Assembly (NCBI GenBank): GCA_017936205.1
Contig: JAGBGB010000202.1
Location: forward strand, 1 to 11,399
From: Oscillospiraceae bacterium
GTDB lineage: Bacteria; Bacillota; Clostridia; Oscillospirales; Oscillospiraceae
Direction: 5' to 3'
Length of the DNA stretch: 11,399 bases
This document shows positions 1 through 9,778 of the stretch, one piece after another. The notes beneath the pieces are model-generated. The model ran no database searches, was not told the DNA's origin, and worked only from the letters and a program-made list of their open reading frames with translations. Each line of letters opens with the position of its first letter. Position 1 is the first letter of the stretch. The position numbers were made by a program, and so were the translations under genes.

Positions 1-1280
1 GCCATAGCGGTACTGGGAGCCGCCGTTGGCAGCTCTTTGCGGTATTTGGGACCACTGTTGGCAAGGATCTTACCCATGATGGAGCCTGCGATCCGTCGCA
101 CATCTCCCTCCGGGTGCATCAGTAGCTCATAGAGGAATGCCAGTAGTTTCTGCTTATTGCTGCGGGTCATATAGGTATTGTACTCGTCAAAAAGCCGCAA
201 ATAGGTACGGATCCGCTGATCCGTCTTCTCGCCCCTTGCCTGCTCTAAAAGCAGATCAAAGGAGGCATCTGTGCTGATCATATGCATCAGCTTCACATTG
301 TTATCAAAGGTCAGCTCCCGTATGGCATCTACAGCCTGTGCCTGAGACAGCAGAGCTGCATCCGTCTCCTCCACAGCCACAGGTGCGTGGACATCGAACT
401 CCGGTTGAATTCCCTTGGACAGCAGGAACCGCTCAAAATCACGGAGCTTACTATAGACCAAACGGTAACGTCGCAGCTTGGCAGGAGTTACATCTGCCAG
501 CTTGCTCATGATCATCTCATAGGCCTGTGCCAGAGAATAGATCCGAACCACCTCACGACCATTCTCTCTGGTTCCCCGTACACGGAAGTCCGCATAGATC
601 AGCAGTAAGGATTCTATGGGCAGATTCTCAAATTCCAGATCCCAAGTGGAATGATTGGCAGAAACATGGGCGATCTTCTCCATGCCCCGTTCCGACAGCC
701 ACTGGAAGGTATAATAATAGTGTAAATAAGGGATCCGCTTGGCATCCTCTCCACGGCAAGCGAATTTTCCGATATCGTGACACAGAGCAGCGGCCTCCAC
801 CAGAGGCACATCTACAGGCAAGCCTGCCCGTCGTGCAAGGAGGGCTCCGTGGACTGCCACATTCCGCACACCAATGGTGTGAGAGGCTGCATCGAAGGGC
901 ATAAGCTCCCGTCCCAGATACAGCATGGCAAGGAAGTGGGACTGCTCCAGAGCTGCACGGAAGAGAGGATACTCCTCCCTGACCCGACTGCTGCCGCACA
1001 GAGACGGGTCCACAGGCAGCAGATCCGTCAGCGGGTCAAAGCCCTCCTTCTTCGTCTCCAGAGCTTCTTCCAGACTCTTCACATACAGATCCACAGCCTG
1101 CTGCACCTGTGAGCTCGGATGGATATAGTCTCCATCGGGGAACAAGCCATTGCACAGGGAGGCATAGATACAGGGAAGCCAGCCCTCCGAGGGCTCCGGT
1201 GCAAGAGCCTCCATAGAAGGTCTCAGCGCCTCTAAAATATGTTCACAGGATATACGGTTCTTTGGGTTCTCAAGCTTCAT
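1..1280 (-). CDS. HD-domain protein with C-terminal helical (HEAT-like) region, partial at left edge
   Basis: I translated this frame by hand from the ATG at 1278-1280; it stays open for 426 codons to the window edge, so the C-terminus is missing. A ribosome binding site AAAGGGAG (complement of 1289-1296) lies 8 nt before the ATG. Residues about 135-235 look like an HD metal-dependent phosphohydrolase domain: H144, then the hallmark H168-D169 in CHDIGK, H205 and H210, and D231 in YADFRVRG, in the order H...HD...H...H...D. HD domains usually hydrolyse phosphoesters or nucleotides. After residue 320 the chain looks all-helical, and residues about 378-410 (HPEGDVRRIAGSIMGKIL) resemble a HEAT/ARM repeat, so a scaffold-like extension probably follows beyond the window. 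No signal peptide or membrane segment is seen, so it is cytoplasmic. It has its own promoter (1336-1364) and lies downstream of the SLH gene's terminator. The substrate is unknown. Confidence 0.85.
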   Translation of the reverse strand, partial: MKLENPKNRISCEHILEALRPSMEALAPEPSEGWLPCIYASLCNGLFPDGDYIHPSSQVQQAVDLYVKSLEEALETKKEGFDPLTDLLPVDPSLCGSSRVREEYPLFRAALEQSHFLAMLYLGRELMPFDAASHTIGVRNVAVHGALLARRAGLPVDVPLVEAAALCHDIGKFACRGEDAKRIPYLHYYYTFQWLSERGMEKIAHVSANHSTWDLEFENLPIESLLLIYADFRVRGTRENGREVVRIYSLAQAYEMIMSKLADVTPAKLRRYRLVYSKLRDFERFLLSKGIQPEFDVHAPVAVEETDAALLSQAQAVDAIRELTFDNNVKLMHMISTDASFDLLLEQARGEKTDQRIRTYLRLFDEYNTYMTRSNKQKLLAFLYELLMHPEGDVRRIAGSIMGKILANSGPKYRKELPTAAPSTAM

Positions 1281-1335
1281 TTTTACCGCTCCCTTTGTAT
1301 AGAATGATCTATCTGCAATAAGGTGATACATTTTT

Positions 1336-1364
1336 ATTATACCGAATTTTTCTCCCATATACAA
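1336..1364 (-). promoter_or_regulatory. Sigma-A promoter of the HD-domain gene
   Basis: On the minus strand the -35 box TTGTAT (complement of 1359-1364) and a perfect -10 box TATAAT (complement of 1336-1341) are separated by exactly 17 bp. Transcription would start near 1328-1329, giving a leader of about 48 nt before the ATG at 1280. The -35 is weak, but the perfect -10 and ideal spacing make the call good. Confidence 0.75.
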
Positions 1365-1409
1365 TAGCCTGAGATACAAAAAAAATCCATTTTTCGATAC
1401 AACAGGAAA

Positions 1410-1457: not shown

Positions 1458-4400
1458 TTACTTGATCAGTCGGTCATATTCCATAATGATTTTCGCCATC
1501 TGACCTCTGGTTGCAGTGTTCTGAGGCGCCAGAATAGTTTCACGGACACCATTGACAATGCCCTCACCTACTGCCCATGCAAAAGCATCGGCTGCGTAGC
1601 CGCTGATGGAAGCAGCATCCTCGAAGCCGGACAGATCCGTCTTCTCAGCGGCACTTACATCATAGCCTGCCAGCTTTGCGTAGCGGTACAGGAAGGTAAC
1701 CATCTGCTCACGGGTCACAGCCTGATCCGGTGCGAAGCGATCCTCGCTTACACCCTTGACCACACCGTTCTCATAGCCCCACTGCACAGCATCGGCATAC
1801 CACAGCCCCTCAGCTACATCGGTAAAGACAGTGCTTCCGCTGACCTCGGGAGAGCCTGCAATGCGGTACAGAATGGTCACTACCATAGCGCGGTTCAGAG
1901 TCTTATCCGGTGCGAAGGTGCTATCGTTCATACCGTTCATCAAGCCATTCTCGAAGACATATTCCACAGCCTCACGGTACCACAGATTCTCAGGCACATC
2001 GGTGAAGGGGAATTCCGGCTCCCAAGCTGCGGCAGTGACGACCACTTCTCCACGGTCACGGACACGGAGTCGTGCGTAGCTGTCATGGGAAATTGCATAG
2101 GTATTGTCGTAGGAAGCCAGACCAATGGCAGTTACCACAGCCTTAACCTTCAAGTTCTCGATGACCTTATCCATAGTAATATAGCCATCGATGAAGATAC
2201 GGGCAACCGTGCCCTCTTCGTCCTTAATGTAGATGGACTCTACCAGACCGCTGGCCTCGGTGATCTCAGTGACCACACCTTCGAGGCTGACCAGCATACC
2301 TTCTACGGAGCGGTCGTTGAGCTGTGCGGCGGTGATCTTCTTAGGCTCTACGGGCTCGGTCTCGCCCAGCTTCTCTACAGTCTGAACCTGAAGCTCAGGC
2401 TCGCCCTGATAGGCTTCGGTCTGACCGGTAACACGGAGCACATCGCCTAACTTGTAATCCCCGGCAACAGGGAAGCAGTTGATGCCTGCGGTCTCGTCCT
2501 GCACATAGATGCAGTCGAAGAAGGCGGTGGTCTTGTCGTAGCCGGAAGCGTTGGAGGTCACTACGCCCTCAATGGTGAACTTGTAGCCTTCCTCTGTCTG
2601 GGCACGAACCTCGGAAATAGGAGTGACCCTTACAGGCTTCATAGCCCCAAAAAGGACTTCACAGAAGGCATTGTTTCCGGTCTCTGCAGGGATCTTCAGG
2701 TCGTAGTCGTTCATGAAGGAAGCACCTGCTACAAGAATCATGCCCTTGTCAGCAAAGCGTTCCACTGCCATGACCAGCAGACGAGTGTCTTCTGTATCGT
2801 AGGAATACTTCACAGAATCGCTGCCGCCCTTGCCGTCATTGTCTGCATCCTTGGAGATGGTCTCTGCATTGGCAAAGAGGATGGGAGATACCCCTGCCGG
2901 GAAGCTCTGTGTTGCCTGTCCTGCTTCATCTACTGCATAGACGGTAGAACCGCCGTAGTAGCTAATGGGCTGATCCAATCCTTCAGTCAGAGGATCCTGA
3001 CCATAGGAACCGAAGCTGAGGCCGTAGGAGGTATCCTCATAGGTTCCGTCATCGTGGAGACGGAGAGAGGAACTCAGAGCCTCTAACAGGCGATTCTGGG
3101 TAGCTGCGGTATGGGGCTCTATCTTGTCATTGCTGTCACCACCACCGGTGATGATCAGCATGCCGCCTCTGTTATGGAAGGCCGCCAGAGCCGCCAGCTC
3201 TTCTTCGGAATAATCCTTTGCTTCACCCTGACGACGGGAAGGAGCAGTGATAACCAGCGCATTGTAGTCCTCGTTGTTACAAGCAGCGATCAGAGCCGCA
3301 GAATCATTGAGGATCTGGGTGCGGATAGAGGACGCAGTTGCAAGACTTACAAAGTTCTTGATCAGATCCTTGTTGTAGCCGGTCACATACTCGTTTGCGT
3401 GGGAGGCATCGATGCCTACATAGCAGATATCCTCCACAGACTGCACATCCAGCTCCACGGAGGTGGAGAAGGTGTAGTCCTTGCCCTCATATTCCACTAC
3501 TGCGGTCACAGTAATGGTCAGGAGCTTTGCAGCAGTGGGAACATAGTTCCATGTCAAGGTCTTCTCACTGAGAGCAGACAGATCGTAGGAGTTGTTGTCC
3601 ACATAGAGCACCTCGTTGCCGTTGGTGGTGTAGACCACATTCTTAATCACAGCATCAGCGGTTTCTTCGTTATAGAAGGTGGTGGACAGGGTCAGCTCTT
3701 CCCCTACTACGGGAGTAGCGGTGCTGGCTACGGTCTCACGAGCGCCCAGCTTCAGGCTCTCGCCTACCCAAATGGGAGCGGTAACAGCAAGATCCTTATC
3801 AGCCTGGGTCACACGGACATAGTAGTAGGAATACTCGGGATCCAGCTCTGCGGTCAAGGTGCCACTTGCCAGCTCCTCAGCATTGTCCCAAGTGTAGGCG
3901 ACCTTGCCGGAGTTGACGATCAGCTCTACTCTCACTATGCTGTCGCTGCTGTCGGGATCATACATAGAAATTGCAAAGCTCAGCTTGCCGGGAACGGTCT
4001 CAATGATAGTACCCATAGGCAGATCATTGACCATGTAGGACAGCTCCAGATTTCGATCCTCCGTTGCATAGACACGGTAGTTACGGATGGCTTCATAAAT
4101 GGCTTCTTCAGAGAAGCTCTCAGCCAGAATAACATCACGAGCCTCATTGCCGTTGCCCCACTTTGCCTTATGGTTGTCCTGATTGTTGGTGGGAGCAATG
4201 TGCCAACCCTTATCCAGAGCCAGAGTGTACTGGTCATAGCTGGGATAGTAGCCGCCACCATGGATGGGGCCTTCACCGTTACCAACCTCGACCAGATAGA
4301 CACGGGTATCTGCCAAGGGATTCCAATATGCAAAGTTGGCAAAATTGCCGAACATCGTTCCCGGGTGATTGAGTTGGGTAATAGAATCCACGCCGGCATC

Positions 4401-7400
4401 GGTGCTGATCAGGTCATAGTAAGCACGCATACCTGCATCTGCACTCTTGTTGTTCAGGGTCTTGTTGTTCCGGGAAACGATACCCTCGGTGACGAAGGTG
4501 TTCATGTGTCCGGGGCCTCCTGACCAAGTCATTTCGAAGCCGGGGATAGCAATGATATTATCATGACTTGCATTGAAGTCAGCCATGGAGGTCTTGTAGG
4601 TATTCCACAGCGCGTAGGAAGCAGGAGTACACAGGGATGCGTCGAAGAGAGCTGCCTCCGGGTTCGGTTCAGCAGAGGTATCGAAGTAGTTAGAGTGGTC
4701 AGTAAATGCCACGAAGTCTACATTTGCGTCCTCAGGCAGATCCGCAATATACTCCAATGCGCTGTCCAGAGTACCTGCACCGTCGGAGTATCCGGTATGA
4801 GCATGGAGCTGACCGTAGAGGAGCTGATACTTTGCCTCACCGACGGTGAAGCTCCAGCTCTTGGTCGCAACCTTCCCGTCTGCACGAGTGACGGTAAGGG
4901 AAACACTGACGCTGCCGTCCTCCATAGGTTCAGCAGGCTGATAGCTGACCACGCTGTCGGCATAAGCAGCTTCTACCGTCTCGCCGTTGACAGTCAGAAC
5001 AATGGTGGGGTTCTCACCTGTATTGCTCAGCTTAGCAGAGATTACAGGACGCTTGTCGTCCTTAGTCTGTGCATTGGGGATGGGGGTTACATCGGAAATG
5101 GTGGGCTCGTCCTTGACCTCAATGACGACAGAGGACTCAATGGCGACACCCTTGTTATCCAGACCCTTGACCGTAACAGTCAGGGACTCACCTGCTACCA
5201 GATCAGCAGGAATGATCACGGAATAGCGTCCATTGGAGAAGGTGCTCTCCAGTTCTGTTTCTCCAAGGAATACATGGAGCTCCTTGATGCCGAAGAGAGC
5301 CTCAACGGTAAAGCGGAGCAGATACTTCTGCCCTGCATAGGCAGTGCCGGGATTGCCGAAGACAGCCTTGGGCTCATTGACCACACCGTCAGTGATCTTC
5401 TCGTTGCTGCAGGGATAGAAGCTGTAGGTGAAGATATCACGGTCTATGACCTCCGTCATACCCCATGTGGTGAAGCCTTCGGAATAGTACTGCAGGAACT
5501 GGCGGTTGCCCTCGAAGGCTGCGGTGCGGCTGCCCAGAGTGTAGCCACCGTTATATTCCTCCAACAGCCAGTCTGCATCCTCAGAAGCAGTCATGGTGTA
5601 GAAGGCATTGTTGCCCGTACCTGTGGAGCAGAGATAGCCGAAGGAAGGGTTGAAGAAGCGGTAGTATTCCCCATTCTTCTCCACCTTGAACAGCAGAGCA
5701 CCGTTGGAGCAGTCAGCCTTGCCTTCAAGGATCTTGGCAGCAGCAGCCTTGACGAAGCAGGTGTTGACATCCTTGATATCCCCTTCCATGCCGGAGAGAA
5801 CGCCCTTTGCAGACTGGTTGTAGATCACGACCACATCTCCCTCCTGAGGGAGACCGGGGCGTTCCTGTCCGTCCAGCTTATAGATGCACACAGGCTTCTG
5901 ACCGGTTCCGCCGTAGCAGGAGAAAATACCTACGGTATTGTAGCGGATGGTGTTGGAGCCCTTATCAGCCTTGGAGACAATGGCAGCAGTGCCGTCGGAT
6001 GCAATGGTAATGGTGAAGGATGCGTTAATATCCTTCTCCTCCTGCGTACGCAGGAGGTTGCCGCTTTCCGTAGAGGCGTACAGGTAGCCGGGGAAGTCAC
6101 CGTTGGTGGCATACAGTGCGAAGGTATTTGCCTCAACACCGGATTCCAGAGTGATGATCTGCGTGCCCTCGTCATAACTGCAGCGGTCATATGCCTTAAT
6201 GACCTGACCGTAGTCGCGGTTATTTGCCTTCTGGGTCACACCCAGAGAATAGTCAAAGTCCTTGGTAACGATGATGATCTGATCACCGGAAGCCAACTGG
6301 GATACGTCGGTCACAAGCTGTGCCTGCTTCTCGCCCAGCACGGGGGGTACATAGATGGTATAGGTGAAGGTCACTTCCTTGCTGTCCTCCATGCCCTCCT
6401 TCACAGCCTTGACGGTGAAGACTGTATCCTCGGTAATGGCAATGGGAGCAGTGTACTCCACCCATTCTCCTTCCCCAATGCGGTAGAGGATGCTTGCACC
6501 CTCAGTAGCACAGCTAAAGCTGATCTCTGTACCGGAGTCGACCACACCGCTTCTGGGGCTGGCTTTAGGAGTTGCTACAGTATTGGAGGGCGTCACATTG
6601 CCCCCTACAACATAGAAGCGGACTGCATACAGCTCCTCTGTGGGATTGTAGAATGCAGACCAGTAGCCCTTGTCTGCGTACCATTCCAGATATGTGCCGA
6701 TGGGGCCCTTGACGAAGAACTCGTCTTCCTTTCCATCTAACTTCTCCAGAGTCCATGCGGCATTCTCCTCGCTGAAGCCCAGATGGGTGCGGTTCACAAC
6801 TGCCAGCTTCTGACCGGCTGCAGTGGTGAAGCTGTAGGTTCCATCCTCGTTGACGCCAACAGTCCAGATGTGCTCCTCACCGAAGCCGGAGAGGCTGTCG
6901 TTGGAAAGCACCAGCTCTGTACCTGCCAGATCCTGATTCTTCTCTGCATCCACGATATTAGAGGACAAGCCCATGCTATGGGTAGGATTATAAATAACCA
7001 CACGATCCCCGGCGGTCAGGGTATCCGTGAAGCCACCGACGTTTGCCGCAAAGAACTGCATGAGATATGCGCCGGAATTATAGCTCTGGAAGCTGTAAAC
7101 CGTGAAGTTGCCCTTGTAGTATTCCAGAGCCATGGCAGAATTACTGACACTCTTAACGAAGAAGCCGCCCTCTGCTGCTTCTACTGCCCAGAGACTACCA
7201 TCGGACTCTGCTGCCTCGAAGGTAAGCTGATTGGCAGAGCCGCCGAAGGTCAGGAACTCTCCCGCAGCATTTTGGAAGCTATAATAGCCATCGGCATCCA
7301 CGCTCAGAGTCACAGCCTCCATACCCTCAGCAACCAGAAGCTGGTCATTCTCTACAGTTCCGGCAATAGAAGCCAACTGGGTTCCGCTTGCCTGCGCAGT

Positions 7401-8153
7401 CAGAACGGCCTTATTTCTGGGATTGTAGATGTATACGCTCTGTCCATTCTCAATCTCAGTGATCAGATCGGCCAGTTCCCCTTCCGGCTCTGTAGGAGGC
7501 TCCGTAGGGTCGGGAACTGTAGGAGGCTCCGTAGGATCGGGAGTTGTGGGAGGCTCCGTAGGATCGGGTTCGGTGGGAACCGTGGTCTCCGGAGGCTCGA
7601 TACCATCGGCAGAGATCCAGAAGTTCAGGGTCTCTCCGGCAATGTTCCCGGTATCATAGGTCTTGTAGGCTCTCCAGTCGGGAGTTGCTCCTGCATAGAC
7701 ACCCAAATATCTGGCATTCCCATCAGGATCGGCAGTGGTCAGATAGCCGCCCTCATGGAGCGTCCAGACCGCTGCAGTCTCACCGATACGGACACAGTTA
7801 TTGCCGGTGACAATATATAACTGCCCATTTGCGGCATGAATGTTGTATCCACCCTCAACAGCCTCGATAGTCCAGCCGAAATCTTCGGCAGCACCGGCAG
7901 TGCTCAGAACCTCTCCGTCTGTTGTGGCAACTACAGCCAGAGGCTGTCCGCTGCTGCCTGCTCCAACTGTGGGCAGGGCATAGGTGGTTCCTTCCTTGGT
8001 CATGGTGATGGCTACGGTATCACTCGGCTGGATCTCTGCAAGGCTGACCTTTTTCCAGAGGGTGCTTTCCCCTTCAGCAAAGGACACTGCAGGCAGCAGA
8101 GAGAATACCATTGCAACGATCAGCAGCCAAGAAAGAATTCTGCTTTTCTTCAT
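1458..8153 (-). CDS. Giant secreted SLH-anchored PHP-domain (CehA/McbA-type) metallohydrolase
   Basis: This 2231-residue protein starts at an ATG with AAGGAGG (complement of 8161-8167) 7 nt upstream. Seen in order: signal peptide 1-26 (KKSR, hydrophobic core, S-F-A cut site); beta-rich modules at about 34-181, 228-370, 377-517, 609-761 and 770-915; Pro/Thr linker 187-224; chitobiase-C-like domain 527-600; Ig-like domains about 923-1105; PHP domain about 1110-1370; Ig-like 1375-1572; GATase-like domain (DUF4350 type) about 1576-1842; OB-fold-like domains about 1846-1928 and 1938-2040; SLH motifs from about 2050, 2110 and 2175. The PHP domain keeps nine candidate metal ligands: H1117, H1119, D1124, H1153, E1207, H1216, H1263, D1326, H1328. 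Known of the families: PHP enzymes hydrolyse phosphoesters with a metal cluster; SLH triplets bind secondary wall polymer. Inferred: an exported, wall-bound phosphoesterase, perhaps acting on nucleic acids or nucleotides since OB folds often bind them. Substrate unproven. It has its own promoter and terminator. Confidence 0.93.
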   Translation of the reverse strand: MKKSRILSWLLIVAMVFSLLPAVSFAEGESTLWKKVSLAEIQPSDTVAITMTKEGTTYALPTVGAGSSGQPLAVVATTDGEVLSTAGAAEDFGWTIEAVEGGYNIHAANGQLYIVTGNNCVRIGETAAVWTLHEGGYLTTADPDGNARYLGVYAGATPDWRAYKTYDTGNIAGETLNFWISADGIEPPETTVPTEPDPTEPPTTPDPTEPPTVPDPTEPPTEPEGELADLITEIENGQSVYIYNPRNKAVLTAQASGTQLASIAGTVENDQLLVAEGMEAVTLSVDADGYYSFQNAAGEFLTFGGSANQLTFEAAESDGSLWAVEAAEGGFFVKSVSNSAMALEYYKGNFTVYSFQSYNSGAYLMQFFAANVGGFTDTLTAGDRVVIYNPTHSMGLSSNIVDAEKNQDLAGTELVLSNDSLSGFGEEHIWTVGVNEDGTYSFTTAAGQKLAVVNRTHLGFSEENAAWTLEKLDGKEDEFFVKGPIGTYLEWYADKGYWSAFYNPTEELYAVRFYVVGGNVTPSNTVATPKASPRSGVVDSGTEISFSCATEGASILYRIGEGEWVEYTAPIAITEDTVFTVKAVKEGMEDSKEVTFTYTIYVPPVLGEKQAQLVTDVSQLASGDQIIIVTKDFDYSLGVTQKANNRDYGQVIKAYDRCSYDEGTQIITLESGVEANTFALYATNGDFPGYLYASTESGNLLRTQEEKDINASFTITIASDGTAAIVSKADKGSNTIRYNTVGIFSCYGGTGQKPVCIYKLDGQERPGLPQEGDVVVIYNQSAKGVLSGMEGDIKDVNTCFVKAAAAKILEGKADCSNGALLFKVEKNGEYYRFFNPSFGYLCSTGTGNNAFYTMTASEDADWLLEEYNGGYTLGSRTAAFEGNRQFLQYYSEGFTTWGMTEVIDRDIFTYSFYPCSNEKITDGVVNEPKAVFGNPGTAYAGQKYLLRFTVEALFGIKELHVFLGETELESTFSNGRYSVIIPADLVAGESLTVTVKGLDNKGVAIESSVVIEVKDEPTISDVTPIPNAQTKDDKRPVISAKLSNTGENPTIVLTVNGETVEAAYADSVVSYQPAEPMEDGSVSVSLTVTRADGKVATKSWSFTVGEAKYQLLYGQLHAHTGYSDGAGTLDSALEYIADLPEDANVDFVAFTDHSNYFDTSAEPNPEAALFDASLCTPASYALWNTYKTSMADFNASHDNIIAIPGFEMTWSGGPGHMNTFVTEGIVSRNNKTLNNKSADAGMRAYYDLISTDAGVDSITQLNHPGTMFGNFANFAYWNPLADTRVYLVEVGNGEGPIHGGGYYPSYDQYTLALDKGWHIAPTNNQDNHKAKWGNGNEARDVILAESFSEEAIYEAIRNYRVYATEDRNLELSYMVNDLPMGTIIETVPGKLSFAISMYDPDSSDSIVRVELIVNSGKVAYTWDNAEELASGTLTAELDPEYSYYYVRVTQADKDLAVTAPIWVGESLKLGARETVASTATPVVGEELTLSTTFYNEETADAVIKNVVYTTNGNEVLYVDNNSYDLSALSEKTLTWNYVPTAAKLLTITVTAVVEYEGKDYTFSTSVELDVQSVEDICYVGIDASHANEYVTGYNKDLIKNFVSLATASSIRTQILNDSAALIAACNNEDYNALVITAPSRRQGEAKDYSEEELAALAAFHNRGGMLIITGGGDSNDKIEPHTAATQNRLLEALSSSLRLHDDGTYEDTSYGLSFGSYGQDPLTEGLDQPISYYGGSTVYAVDEAGQATQSFPAGVSPILFANAETISKDADNDGKGGSDSVKYSYDTEDTRLLVMAVERFADKGMILVAGASFMNDYDLKIPAETGNNAFCEVLFGAMKPVRVTPISEVRAQTEEGYKFTIEGVVTSNASGYDKTTAFFDCIYVQDETAGINCFPVAGDYKLGDVLRVTGQTEAYQGEPELQVQTVEKLGETEPVEPKKITAAQLNDRSVEGMLVSLEGVVTEITEASGLVESIYIKDEEGTVARIFIDGYITMDKVIENLKVKAVVTAIGLASYDNTYAISHDSYARLRVRDRGEVVVTAAAWEPEFPFTDVPENLWYREAVEYVFENGLMNGMNDSTFAPDKTLNRAMVVTILYRIAGSPEVSGSTVFTDVAEGLWYADAVQWGYENGVVKGVSEDRFAPDQAVTREQMVTFLYRYAKLAGYDVSAAEKTDLSGFEDAASISGYAADAFAWAVGEGIVNGVRETILAPQNTATRGQMAKIIMEYDRLIK
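7492..7572 (-). repeat. Three-copy 27-bp tandem repeat encoding the Pro/Thr/Glu linker
   Basis: The unit containing GGAGGCTCCGTAGG recurs with an exact 27-bp period (copies start near 7492, 7519 and 7546 on the plus strand). Each copy encodes nine residues of the form PDPTEPPTx, giving the linker at residues 187-224 between the first and second beta-rich modules. Proline/threonine linkers of this kind are extended and flexible and are often glycosylated in surface proteins. The repeat is an obvious place for slipped-strand copy-number change without frame loss. Confidence 0.85.
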
Positions 8154-8395: not shown

Positions 8396-9778
8396 CTATA
8401 CTCTGGCGTGACCGCGGGCACAGATCACATCGATCACACTGTCCACATATTTGCGGCACAGCTCCTTGTCAGAAGCCTCCACCATAACACGGATCACAGG
8501 CTCTGTGCCGGATTCCCGTACCAAGATCCGCCCTGTATCCCCTAAAGCCTCCGCAACAGTCTGTACCGCTTTCTGCACCTCCGGGTCCTTCTGCGCCTCG
8601 GGCTTAGAGTGGACTCGAACATTCTTCAGCACCTGAGGATAGAGGGTGAAGCCCTCGCAGAGCTGAGAAAGGCGCTTCTTCTTTGCGAGCATGACCTCCA
8701 TGATCTTCAGGCTGGTCAGGATCCCATCTCCGGTGGTAGCGTATTTGTTAATGATAATATGACCGGACTGCTCCCCACCTAAGCGACAACCGTGCTGCAC
8801 CATATGCTCATACACATATTTGTCCCCAACCTGCGTCTTGGCATAGCCGATGCCTTCTGCATCCAGAGCCTTATAGAGCCCAAAGTTGGACATGACCGTT
8901 GTAACCACGGTGTTATTGGCAAGCTGCCCCCGTTCCTGCATATACTTCCCTAAGATATACAGGATGTGATCCCCGTTCACCACCTGTCCCCGTTCGTCTA
9001 CACAGAGGCAGCGGTCTGCATCGCCGTCATAGGCAAAGCCTACATCCAAGCCCTGCTCCACGACCAGCTTCTGCAGCTTCTCAATATGGGTAGAGCCTGC
9101 CTCCCGATTGATGTTGGTGCCATCGGGCTCTGCATTGATCACGTAGGTCTTGGCGCCTAATGCATCAAATACAGATTTGGCAATATTCCACGCCGCACCG
9201 TTGGCGCAATCCAGCCCCACCTTGATGCCCTTGAAGGAATACAGAGCCAGGCTGATCAAATAGCCCACATAGCGATTTCGACCGGATACATAGTCAACGG
9301 TTCTGCCGATCCGCTCCCCTGTGGCAAAGGGAAGCTCCTCATACCGTGCCCCGAAGAGCTCTAAGTCTCCATCTAAATACTGCTCAATATAAGAGATGGT
9401 CTCCTCGTCCATTTTCTCTCCCTGCGCATTGAGCAGCTTGATTCCGTTGTCATAGAAGGGATTATGGCTGGCAGAGATCATCACACCGCAGTCGAATTCC
9501 TCTGTCCGTGTCACATATGCCACAGAGGGTGTGGTAGTCACATGGAGCAGATAGGCATCTGCCCCGGAGGCGGTGATCCCGGCTGCCAGAGTGTACTCAA
9601 ACATATAAGAAGAACGGCGAGTATCCTTGGCGATCAGGATCCGCGCAGGTGTCTCCCCTACAGGTCGCTTCACAGAAAAATACCAACCTAAAAAACGTCC
9701 TACCTTGTAGGCATGGTCTGCTGTCAGAGTTACATTCGCCTCCCCACGGAAGCCATCGGTGCCGAAATACTTACCCAT
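8396..9778 (-). CDS. glmM: Phosphoglucosamine mutase
   Basis: GlmM interconverts glucosamine-6-phosphate and glucosamine-1-phosphate in the cytoplasm, the committed route to UDP-GlcNAc for peptidoglycan. The 460 residues are close to the family's usual size of about 445-450. Seen: N-terminal KYFGTDGFRG; the phosphoserine loop ISASHNP at 101-107, with S104 as catalytic serine; the Mg-binding loop DGDADR at 251-256 (D251, D253, D255); the sugar-binding loop GGEQSG at 334-339; and the phosphate-binding loop RESGTEP at 421-427. The short loops and the GGEQSGH form fit GlmM rather than phosphoglucomutase or phosphomannomutase. The ATG at 9776-9778 has AAGGAGG (complement of 9788-9794) 9 nt upstream and overlaps the end of the preceding gene by 8 bp (ATGGGTAA), implying translational coupling. 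Transcription comes from the promoter at 10535-10563. It appears intact. Confidence 0.96.
   Translation of the reverse strand: MGKYFGTDGFRGEANVTLTADHAYKVGRFLGWYFSVKRPVGETPARILIAKDTRRSSYMFEYTLAAGITASGADAYLLHVTTTPSVAYVTRTEEFDCGVMISASHNPFYDNGIKLLNAQGEKMDEETISYIEQYLDGDLELFGARYEELPFATGERIGRTVDYVSGRNRYVGYLISLALYSFKGIKVGLDCANGAAWNIAKSVFDALGAKTYVINAEPDGTNINREAGSTHIEKLQKLVVEQGLDVGFAYDGDADRCLCVDERGQVVNGDHILYILGKYMQERGQLANNTVVTTVMSNFGLYKALDAEGIGYAKTQVGDKYVYEHMVQHGCRLGGEQSGHIIINKYATTGDGILTSLKIMEVMLAKKKRLSQLCEGFTLYPQVLKNVRVHSKPEAQKDPEVQKAVQTVAEALGDTGRILVRESGTEPVIRVMVEASDKELCRKYVDSVIDVICARGHARV

What the first reader, a model, noticed from the sequence alone, without database searches (positions are those of the whole stretch)
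4029..4826. Full nine-ligand PHP active site displayed on the cell surface
Residues H1117, H1119, D1124, H1153, E1207, H1216, H1263, D1326 and H1328 occur in the order and motif context (HxH...DH...E...H...H...DxH) of PHP phosphoesterases with a metal cluster. Most well-studied PHP proteins are cytoplasmic, yet this one has a signal peptide and three SLH anchors. It is therefore likely to be an active extracellular phosphoesterase, not a dead scaffold. The CehA/McbA label does not predict its substrate.
Basis: partly seen in the sequence, partly recalled or inferred. Interest (0 to 1): 0.7.

Follow-up and report, generated by a model that had tools for sequence, protein, structure and literature searches.

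The report
Gut bacterium's cell-surface metal phosphoesterase
A very long protein predicted to sit on the outside of a gut bacterium carries a complete three-metal active site, belongs to a large and common family of such enzymes, and is probably used to cut phosphate-containing molecules, perhaps nucleotides or pieces of DNA and RNA; in many relatives a membrane protein of unknown function is encoded right beside it.

Summary

"Phosphoesterase" does not follow from the motif, because CehA and McbA hydrolyse carbamates. Indirect evidence favours it. The core PHP unit, GIFT and OB domains is widespread; some Clostridium relatives add a 5'-nucleotidase. A YibE/F membrane-protein gene adjoins the PHP gene in 46 of 80 loci. 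In the window's order YibE/F genes adjoin a predicted exported phosphoesterase, of three unrelated folds, in 23 of 38 loci. Against this: 6 of 40 in a phylum-wide sample, and no YibE/F beside the window copy, though its paralogue has one.

Best reading: a surface phosphoesterase for phosphate or nucleotide scavenging; substrate untested.

The parts
1458..8153 (-). gene for the 2231-aa surface PHP protein
   Evidence: ORF; translation
8076..8153 (-). predicted Sec signal peptide, residues 1-26
   Evidence: read from sequence; no signal-peptide program run
6609..7472 (-). two related N-terminal repeat modules, residues 228-372 and 374-515; the second resembles a module just before the calcineurin-like domain of this genome's surface 5'-nucleotidase protein
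   Evidence: (32% identity to each other, E 7e-7; 38% to contig C112, E 9e-10)
6372..6557 (-). CHB_HEX_C_1 domain, residues 533-594
4056..4826 (-). PHP catalytic domain, residues 1110-1366
4170..4805 (-). codons of the nine ligands H1117 H1119 D1124 H1153 E1207 H1216 H1263 D1326 H1328
3759..4058 (-). C-terminal beta-sandwich of the PHP unit, residues 1366-1465
   Evidence: model residues 267-366
3432..3722 (-). beta-strand domain, Ig-like by its strands, residues 1478-1574
   Evidence: secondary structure only
2625..3431 (-). GIFT (IFT52-type, glutamine-amidotransferase-like) domain, residues 1575-1843
2184..2630 (-). OB-fold region (DUF5689 / tRNA_anti-codon), residues 1842-1990
1461..2009 (-). 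three SLH repeats, within residues 2049-2231
   Evidence: three stretches; outer limits set by eye
3..1379 (-). downstream neighbour on the same strand: HD-domain protein, open at the window edge; start codon uncertain
8396..9778 (-). upstream neighbour: phosphoglucomutase/phosphomannomutase family protein

Best explanation
An exported, SLH-anchored, metal-dependent PHP phosphoesterase. Shown from sequence and models: the complete nine-ligand site, the PHP fold, the GIFT and OB domains, the SLH repeats and the family-wide architecture. Inferred: the site holds up to three divalent metals that activate water to cleave phosphoesters outside the cell, most likely of nucleotides or nucleic-acid fragments held by the OB domain. 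In the wider family the enzyme probably works with the adjacent YibE/F membrane protein, which may take up or respond to the product.
Against: CehA and McbA themselves are carbamate hydrolases. No substrate, metal or localisation was tested. The window copy has no YibE/F neighbour. Outside the order only 6 of 40 YibE/F loci adjoin a phosphatase, all alkaline phosphatases and none PHP. 15 of 38 YibE/F loci in the order show no phosphoesterase neighbour; some have other enzymes (GH92, GH10). The 5'-nucleotidase fusion is absent from the 120 listed closest relatives. OB folds also bind non-nucleic ligands. The OB match to STN1 is weak (E 4.8e-4 with a profile), and a single-sequence search found nothing.
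Confidence: 0.58

Rival explanations
1. Active surface PHP enzyme whose substrate is a wall or polymer phosphodiester (teichoic acid, glycerophosphodiester, phosphorylated glycan) rather than nucleotides.
For: Surface calcineurin-type phosphoesterases with LTD, Ig and SLH modules are described, and ShfP generates extracellular glycerol in B. subtilis (PMC11488536 passages). The GIFT-region fold list also holds oligosaccharyltransferase and glycoside hydrolase chains.
Against: RPA/STN1-like OB domain and 5'-nucleotidase fusions point to nucleotides. No wall-polymer family is among the 25 commonest neighbour families shown (of 96).
Confidence: 0.17
2. Active surface metallohydrolase of the CehA/McbA type that cuts a carbamate, ester or amide, not a phosphoester.
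For: Passes the CehA/McbA domain model. McbA uses histidines of its PHP-like domain, and CehA four histidines, for carbamates; both have export signals or periplasmic location (PMC8292978 passages).
Against: Genomic linkage and fusions run with phosphoesterases. The nearest solved folds with known activity act on nucleic acids or phosphates (activities partly from the entry titles, partly recalled).
Confidence: 0.15
3. Catalytically dead PHP scaffold used for adhesion or binding.
For: E. coli Pol III keeps a PHP domain that has lost metal ligands (PMC3666897 passages). A group of this family has lost ligands 1, 4 and 9 (P0150, P0160, P0174, P0183, P0185).
Against: All nine ligands kept here, in 76 of 80 loci and in 119 of 119 long relatives; the other 4 loci have alignment gaps at six positions and the remaining three intact.
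Confidence: 0.05

Closest known systems
NCBIfam NF038032 CehA/McbA family metallohydrolase
   Same: Domain scores 92.8 bits, over the cut-off of 80; export signal, as reported for CehA/McbA
   Different: CehA and McbA, described from Rhizobium, sphingomonads and Pseudomonas, are carbamate hydrolases; this is a 2231-aa SLH protein with GIFT and OB domains
TM0559 (2anu) and BVU_3505 (3e38), predicted PHP phosphoesterases
   Different: Titles say 'predicted'; far shorter chains (about 220 and 340 residues), too short for SLH, GIFT or OB domains beside PHP
Sb-PDE of Sphingobium sp. TCM1 (PMC5460133, passages)
   Same: PHP-superfamily protein with a signal peptide and measured phosphodiesterase activity
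   Different: 441 aa in all; sequence not compared here
PHP domains of PolX, Pol III, RNase AM and EndoQ
   Different: Intracellular DNA/RNA enzymes (recalled), 12-20% identity in the aligned part
ShfP (YvnB)-like surface calcineurin phosphoesterases (PMC11488536, passages)
   Same: Large exported phosphoesterases with Ig, LTD and in some cases SLH modules
   Different: Calcineurin-like, not PHP, catalytic fold; no such domain in the window protein

Membership tests
PHP superfamily | nine metal ligands in canonical order | tested here: met
   consensus from PMC3666897 Table 1
PHP superfamily | PHP barrel fold | tested here: met
   predicted model pLDDT 93.3; PHP chains lead the fold lists
PHP superfamily | ligands clustered in one pocket | tested here: inconclusive
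   eight ligands at or after the ends of predicted strands, H1216 at the start of one; no coordinates to measure distances
PHP superfamily | binds divalent metals | not testable with these tools
   needs purified protein
Pfam PF02811 as a model (a score, not a biological feature) | score over the curated cut-off | tested here: not met
   17.5 against 26.4 bits; 15 of 25 full-length members of A3 match at E 0.01
NF038032 CehA/McbA domain family | score over the curated cut-off | tested here: met
   92.8 against 80 bits
NF038032 CehA/McbA domain family | carbamate hydrolysis (namesakes only) | not testable with these tools
   no assay
SLH-anchored surface proteins | SLH repeats | tested here: met
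   three stretches, 105.4 bits
SLH-anchored surface proteins | pyruvyl transferase for the wall polymer in the genome | tested here: inconclusive
   two PF04230 matches over cut-off, not shown to be CsaB
ShfP-like surface calcineurin phosphoesterases | calcineurin-like catalytic domain | tested here: not met
   no PF00149 match in the window protein at E up to 1

The most novel reading that the evidence does not exclude
YibE/F membrane proteins and exchangeable exported phosphoesterases (PHP, purple-acid/calcineurin-like, 5'-nucleotidase, alkaline phosphatase) form an undescribed two-part surface system for scavenging or sensing phosphorus compounds in Clostridia, and the PHP-GIFT-OB proteins are its nucleic-acid or nucleotide-processing branch.
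Probability: 0.4. Interest if true: 0.75.

Novelty: new variant of a known kind. Interest (0 to 1): 0.52.

Why it matters
Relatives of this PHP domain are very numerous (capped), yet the phrase 'McbA family metallohydrolase' is in no paper of the library searched. If the linkage means what it seems to, it gives a likely reaction class to a large set of 'CehA/McbA' proteins whose label misleads, and a functional lead for the YibE/F membrane family: no library paper holds both YibE and YibF (one listed paper holds yibE with 'phosphatase', PMC13227979, not opened), and no solved structure matched its profile at E up to 1.

Tried and rejected
Dead scaffold: rejected for this protein, since no ligand is lost; the real loss group (P0150, P0160, P0174, P0183, P0185) is a different set of 534-662 aa proteins with signal-like starts. 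Three other apparent losses (P0134, P0198, P0226) look like fragments whose ends are out of frame; not counted as real variants. A further 61 of the 120 short hits have alignment gaps at one or more ligand positions.

Close solved relative by sequence: none good. PolX at E 0.56 for the single sequence and 0.0096 with A1; TM0559 at E 0.003 with A2. CehA did not appear among the sequence matches; this excludes nothing. Foldseek rows below the PHP chains are beta-sandwich matches to antibodies and the like, without meaning here. NF033190 is only the SLH region.

Neighbour survey: of 125 nearest ORFs, 4 lying 1500 bases or more away were dropped. In the YibE/F survey the first neighbour lists missed some true genes hidden by longer antisense ORFs (L146, L153, L168); they were added. 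A second apparent calcineurin hit in L168 (9353-14356) is not counted: Pfam shows no such domain in that ORF. Alkaline phosphatase is shown by Pfam for L137; L136 and L138 are 92% identical to it and the tally has 3. The window genome's own C284 pair is left out of the 38. The phylum-wide sample was largely negative (6 of 40); 40 of 54 places outside the window's order were read, and they were scanned with local profiles, not Pfam, so calcineurin-like genes there may be missed. Of the 10 unlinked YibE/F places, six start within 2 kb of a contig's first base, so 14 of 24 may be low.

Papers seen as passages only: PMC11488536, PMC8292978, PMC3666897, PMC6616362, PMC5460133, PMC5636811; others as search listings.
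Full report
WHAT IS THERE. The window is one whole contig of a draft genome of 2.46 Mb in 364 contigs, 72.5% complete. The gene at 1458..8153 on the minus strand encodes 2231 residues. They match the nine-position consensus printed in Table 1 of PMC3666897 at 9 of 9 positions (passages). That paper and PMC5636811 state that nine such residues hold three metals (passages).

HOW FAR BEYOND CHANCE. The CehA/McbA model NF038032 covers residues 1114-1463 at E 2.7e-26, above its cut-off; Pfam's PHP model gives only 17.5 bits, below its cut-off. In 53 aligned sequences the nine positions are 89 to 100% identical. Of 119 long relatives, 119 have all nine. Of the 120 listed relatives of a Clostridium copy, 119 do and one has N at position 8. 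Of 120 short hits, 51 have all nine, 61 have gaps and 8 differ.

A GROUP WITH LOST LIGANDS EXISTS, AND THIS IS NOT IT. Five relatives with signal-like starts (P0150, P0160, P0174, P0183, P0185) lack histidines 1, 4 and 9 together, with arginine at 9. E. coli Pol III also lacks 1, 4 and 9 (and departs at 5 and 7), with arginine at 9, and is held to be likely inactive (PMC3666897 passages). So loss does occur in this family, which makes the intact site here more meaningful.

RELATIVES ARE COMMON AND MOST CHECKED LOOK EXPORTED. A search with the PHP region returned 7,997 proteins at E up to 0.001, the candidate limit. Export was checked only in the 80 loci: 67 of the 70 with an uncut start have a signal-like N-terminus by a simple pattern. 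For anchors, 19 have SLH, 6 an LPxTG-like end and 22 a hydrophobic tail, 22 show none of these and 11 are cut. This genome has two more large PHP proteins, on C284 (with SLH, cut at its start) and C299 (open at both ends), plus a short PHP protein on C319. Extracytoplasmic PHP enzymes are in print: McbA and CehA (PMC8292978) and Sb-PDE (PMC5460133), all seen as passages.

FUSIONS. In Clostridium nigeriense (L053) and a Clostridium MAG (L055) the same protein continues into a calcineurin-like plus 5'-nucleotidase unit. Of the 120 listed relatives of L053, 18 carry both PF00149 and PF02872; of the 120 listed, none. In this genome a separate 2316-aa protein (C112, L096) joins a subtilase, a 5'-nucleotidase and SLH repeats, and shares its SLH region (44%) and one N-terminal module (38%) with the window protein.

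GENE LINKAGE. Among 121 nearest-neighbour ORFs of the 80 loci, 33 are YibE/F membrane proteins; the next commonest families have 3. A profile search finds YibE/F adjacent in 46 of 80 loci: 20 hits downstream on the same strand, 17 upstream and divergent, 8 upstream on the same strand, 2 downstream and convergent (47 hits, one locus holding two pieces). The gap is 250 bases or less in 39 of 46. Changing order with kept adjacency suggests a functional tie. In the window's genome and 19 others drawn as relatives, 14 of 24 YibE/F places over the cut-off lie within 8 kb of a CehA/McbA match. The window's own copy lacks such a neighbour; its 63%-identical paralogue on C284 has YibE/F 21 bases downstream.

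THE REVERSE TEST. I read 38 YibE/F loci: 37 from the order sample plus L103 from a same-genus genome. In 23 of 38 an adjacent ORF is a phosphoesterase: calcineurin-like 17 (L103, L105, L135, L140, L141, L143, L145, L146, L147, L149, L151, L153, L156, L157, L160, L166, L168), PHP 3 (L139, L142, L144), alkaline phosphatase 3 (L136-L138). A simple pattern finds a signal-like start in 22 of these 23; L145, whose ORF was read from a non-ATG start, shows the same kind of stretch by eye. In single-contig genome G020 all seven YibE/F copies have such a neighbour, six calcineurin-like and one PHP. Calcineurin-like matches number 242 in 27 of these genomes, about 3.7 per Mb, so chance within 3 kb is near 2%; related genomes are not independent, so no exact probability is claimed. 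The other 15 have varied neighbours, such as GH92, GH10 or glycolytic genes, or none identified. In a phylum-wide sample (49 of 159 genomes have YibE/F over the cut-off) only 6 of 40 loci read adjoin a phosphatase, all alkaline phosphatases. The tie is thus strong in the window's order and among PHP carriers, weak elsewhere.

CONCLUSION. The active site is complete in sequence and predicted fold; the location is predicted and ordinary for this family. The reaction class is inferred from linkage and fusion, with phosphoesters of nucleotides or nucleic acids the best guess. What looks new is not the PHP site but the conserved PHP-GIFT-OB core and its tie to YibE/F. I met no description of either in my ten paper searches, but those cover open-licence papers only and never used GIFT or OB as terms.

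Noticed in passing
L010:4306-5460 (+), contig C284 of the same genome: A YibE/F membrane protein gene starts 21 bases after the paralogous SLH-PHP gene; such genes recur beside surface PHP genes (46 of 80 loci).
   Followed up: yes
L143, L144, L146, L149, L151, L157, L166 (genome G020): All seven YibE/F copies found in one single-contig genome adjoin a predicted exported phosphoesterase (six calcineurin-like, one PHP).
   Followed up: partly
P0150, P0160, P0174, P0183, P0185: PHP relatives with signal-like starts that have lost ligands 1, 4 and 9 together, three of the five positions at which E. coli Pol III departs from the consensus.
   Followed up: partly
L096:2066-9016 (+), contig C112 of the same genome: A 2316-aa protein joining a subtilase, a 5'-nucleotidase and SLH repeats.
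   Followed up: partly
L154 and L155 (two genomes of one genus) and L169: Two YibE/F genes in tandem; in L154 they are followed by a GH92 glycosidase gene instead of a phosphatase.
   Followed up: no
window 3..1379 (-): HD-domain protein gene close downstream of the PHP gene on the same strand; possible co-transcription not tested.
   Followed up: no
L198, L200, L201, L206, L208, L211: Outside the window's order, YibE/F genes adjoin alkaline phosphatase genes in 6 of 40 loci read.
   Followed up: partly
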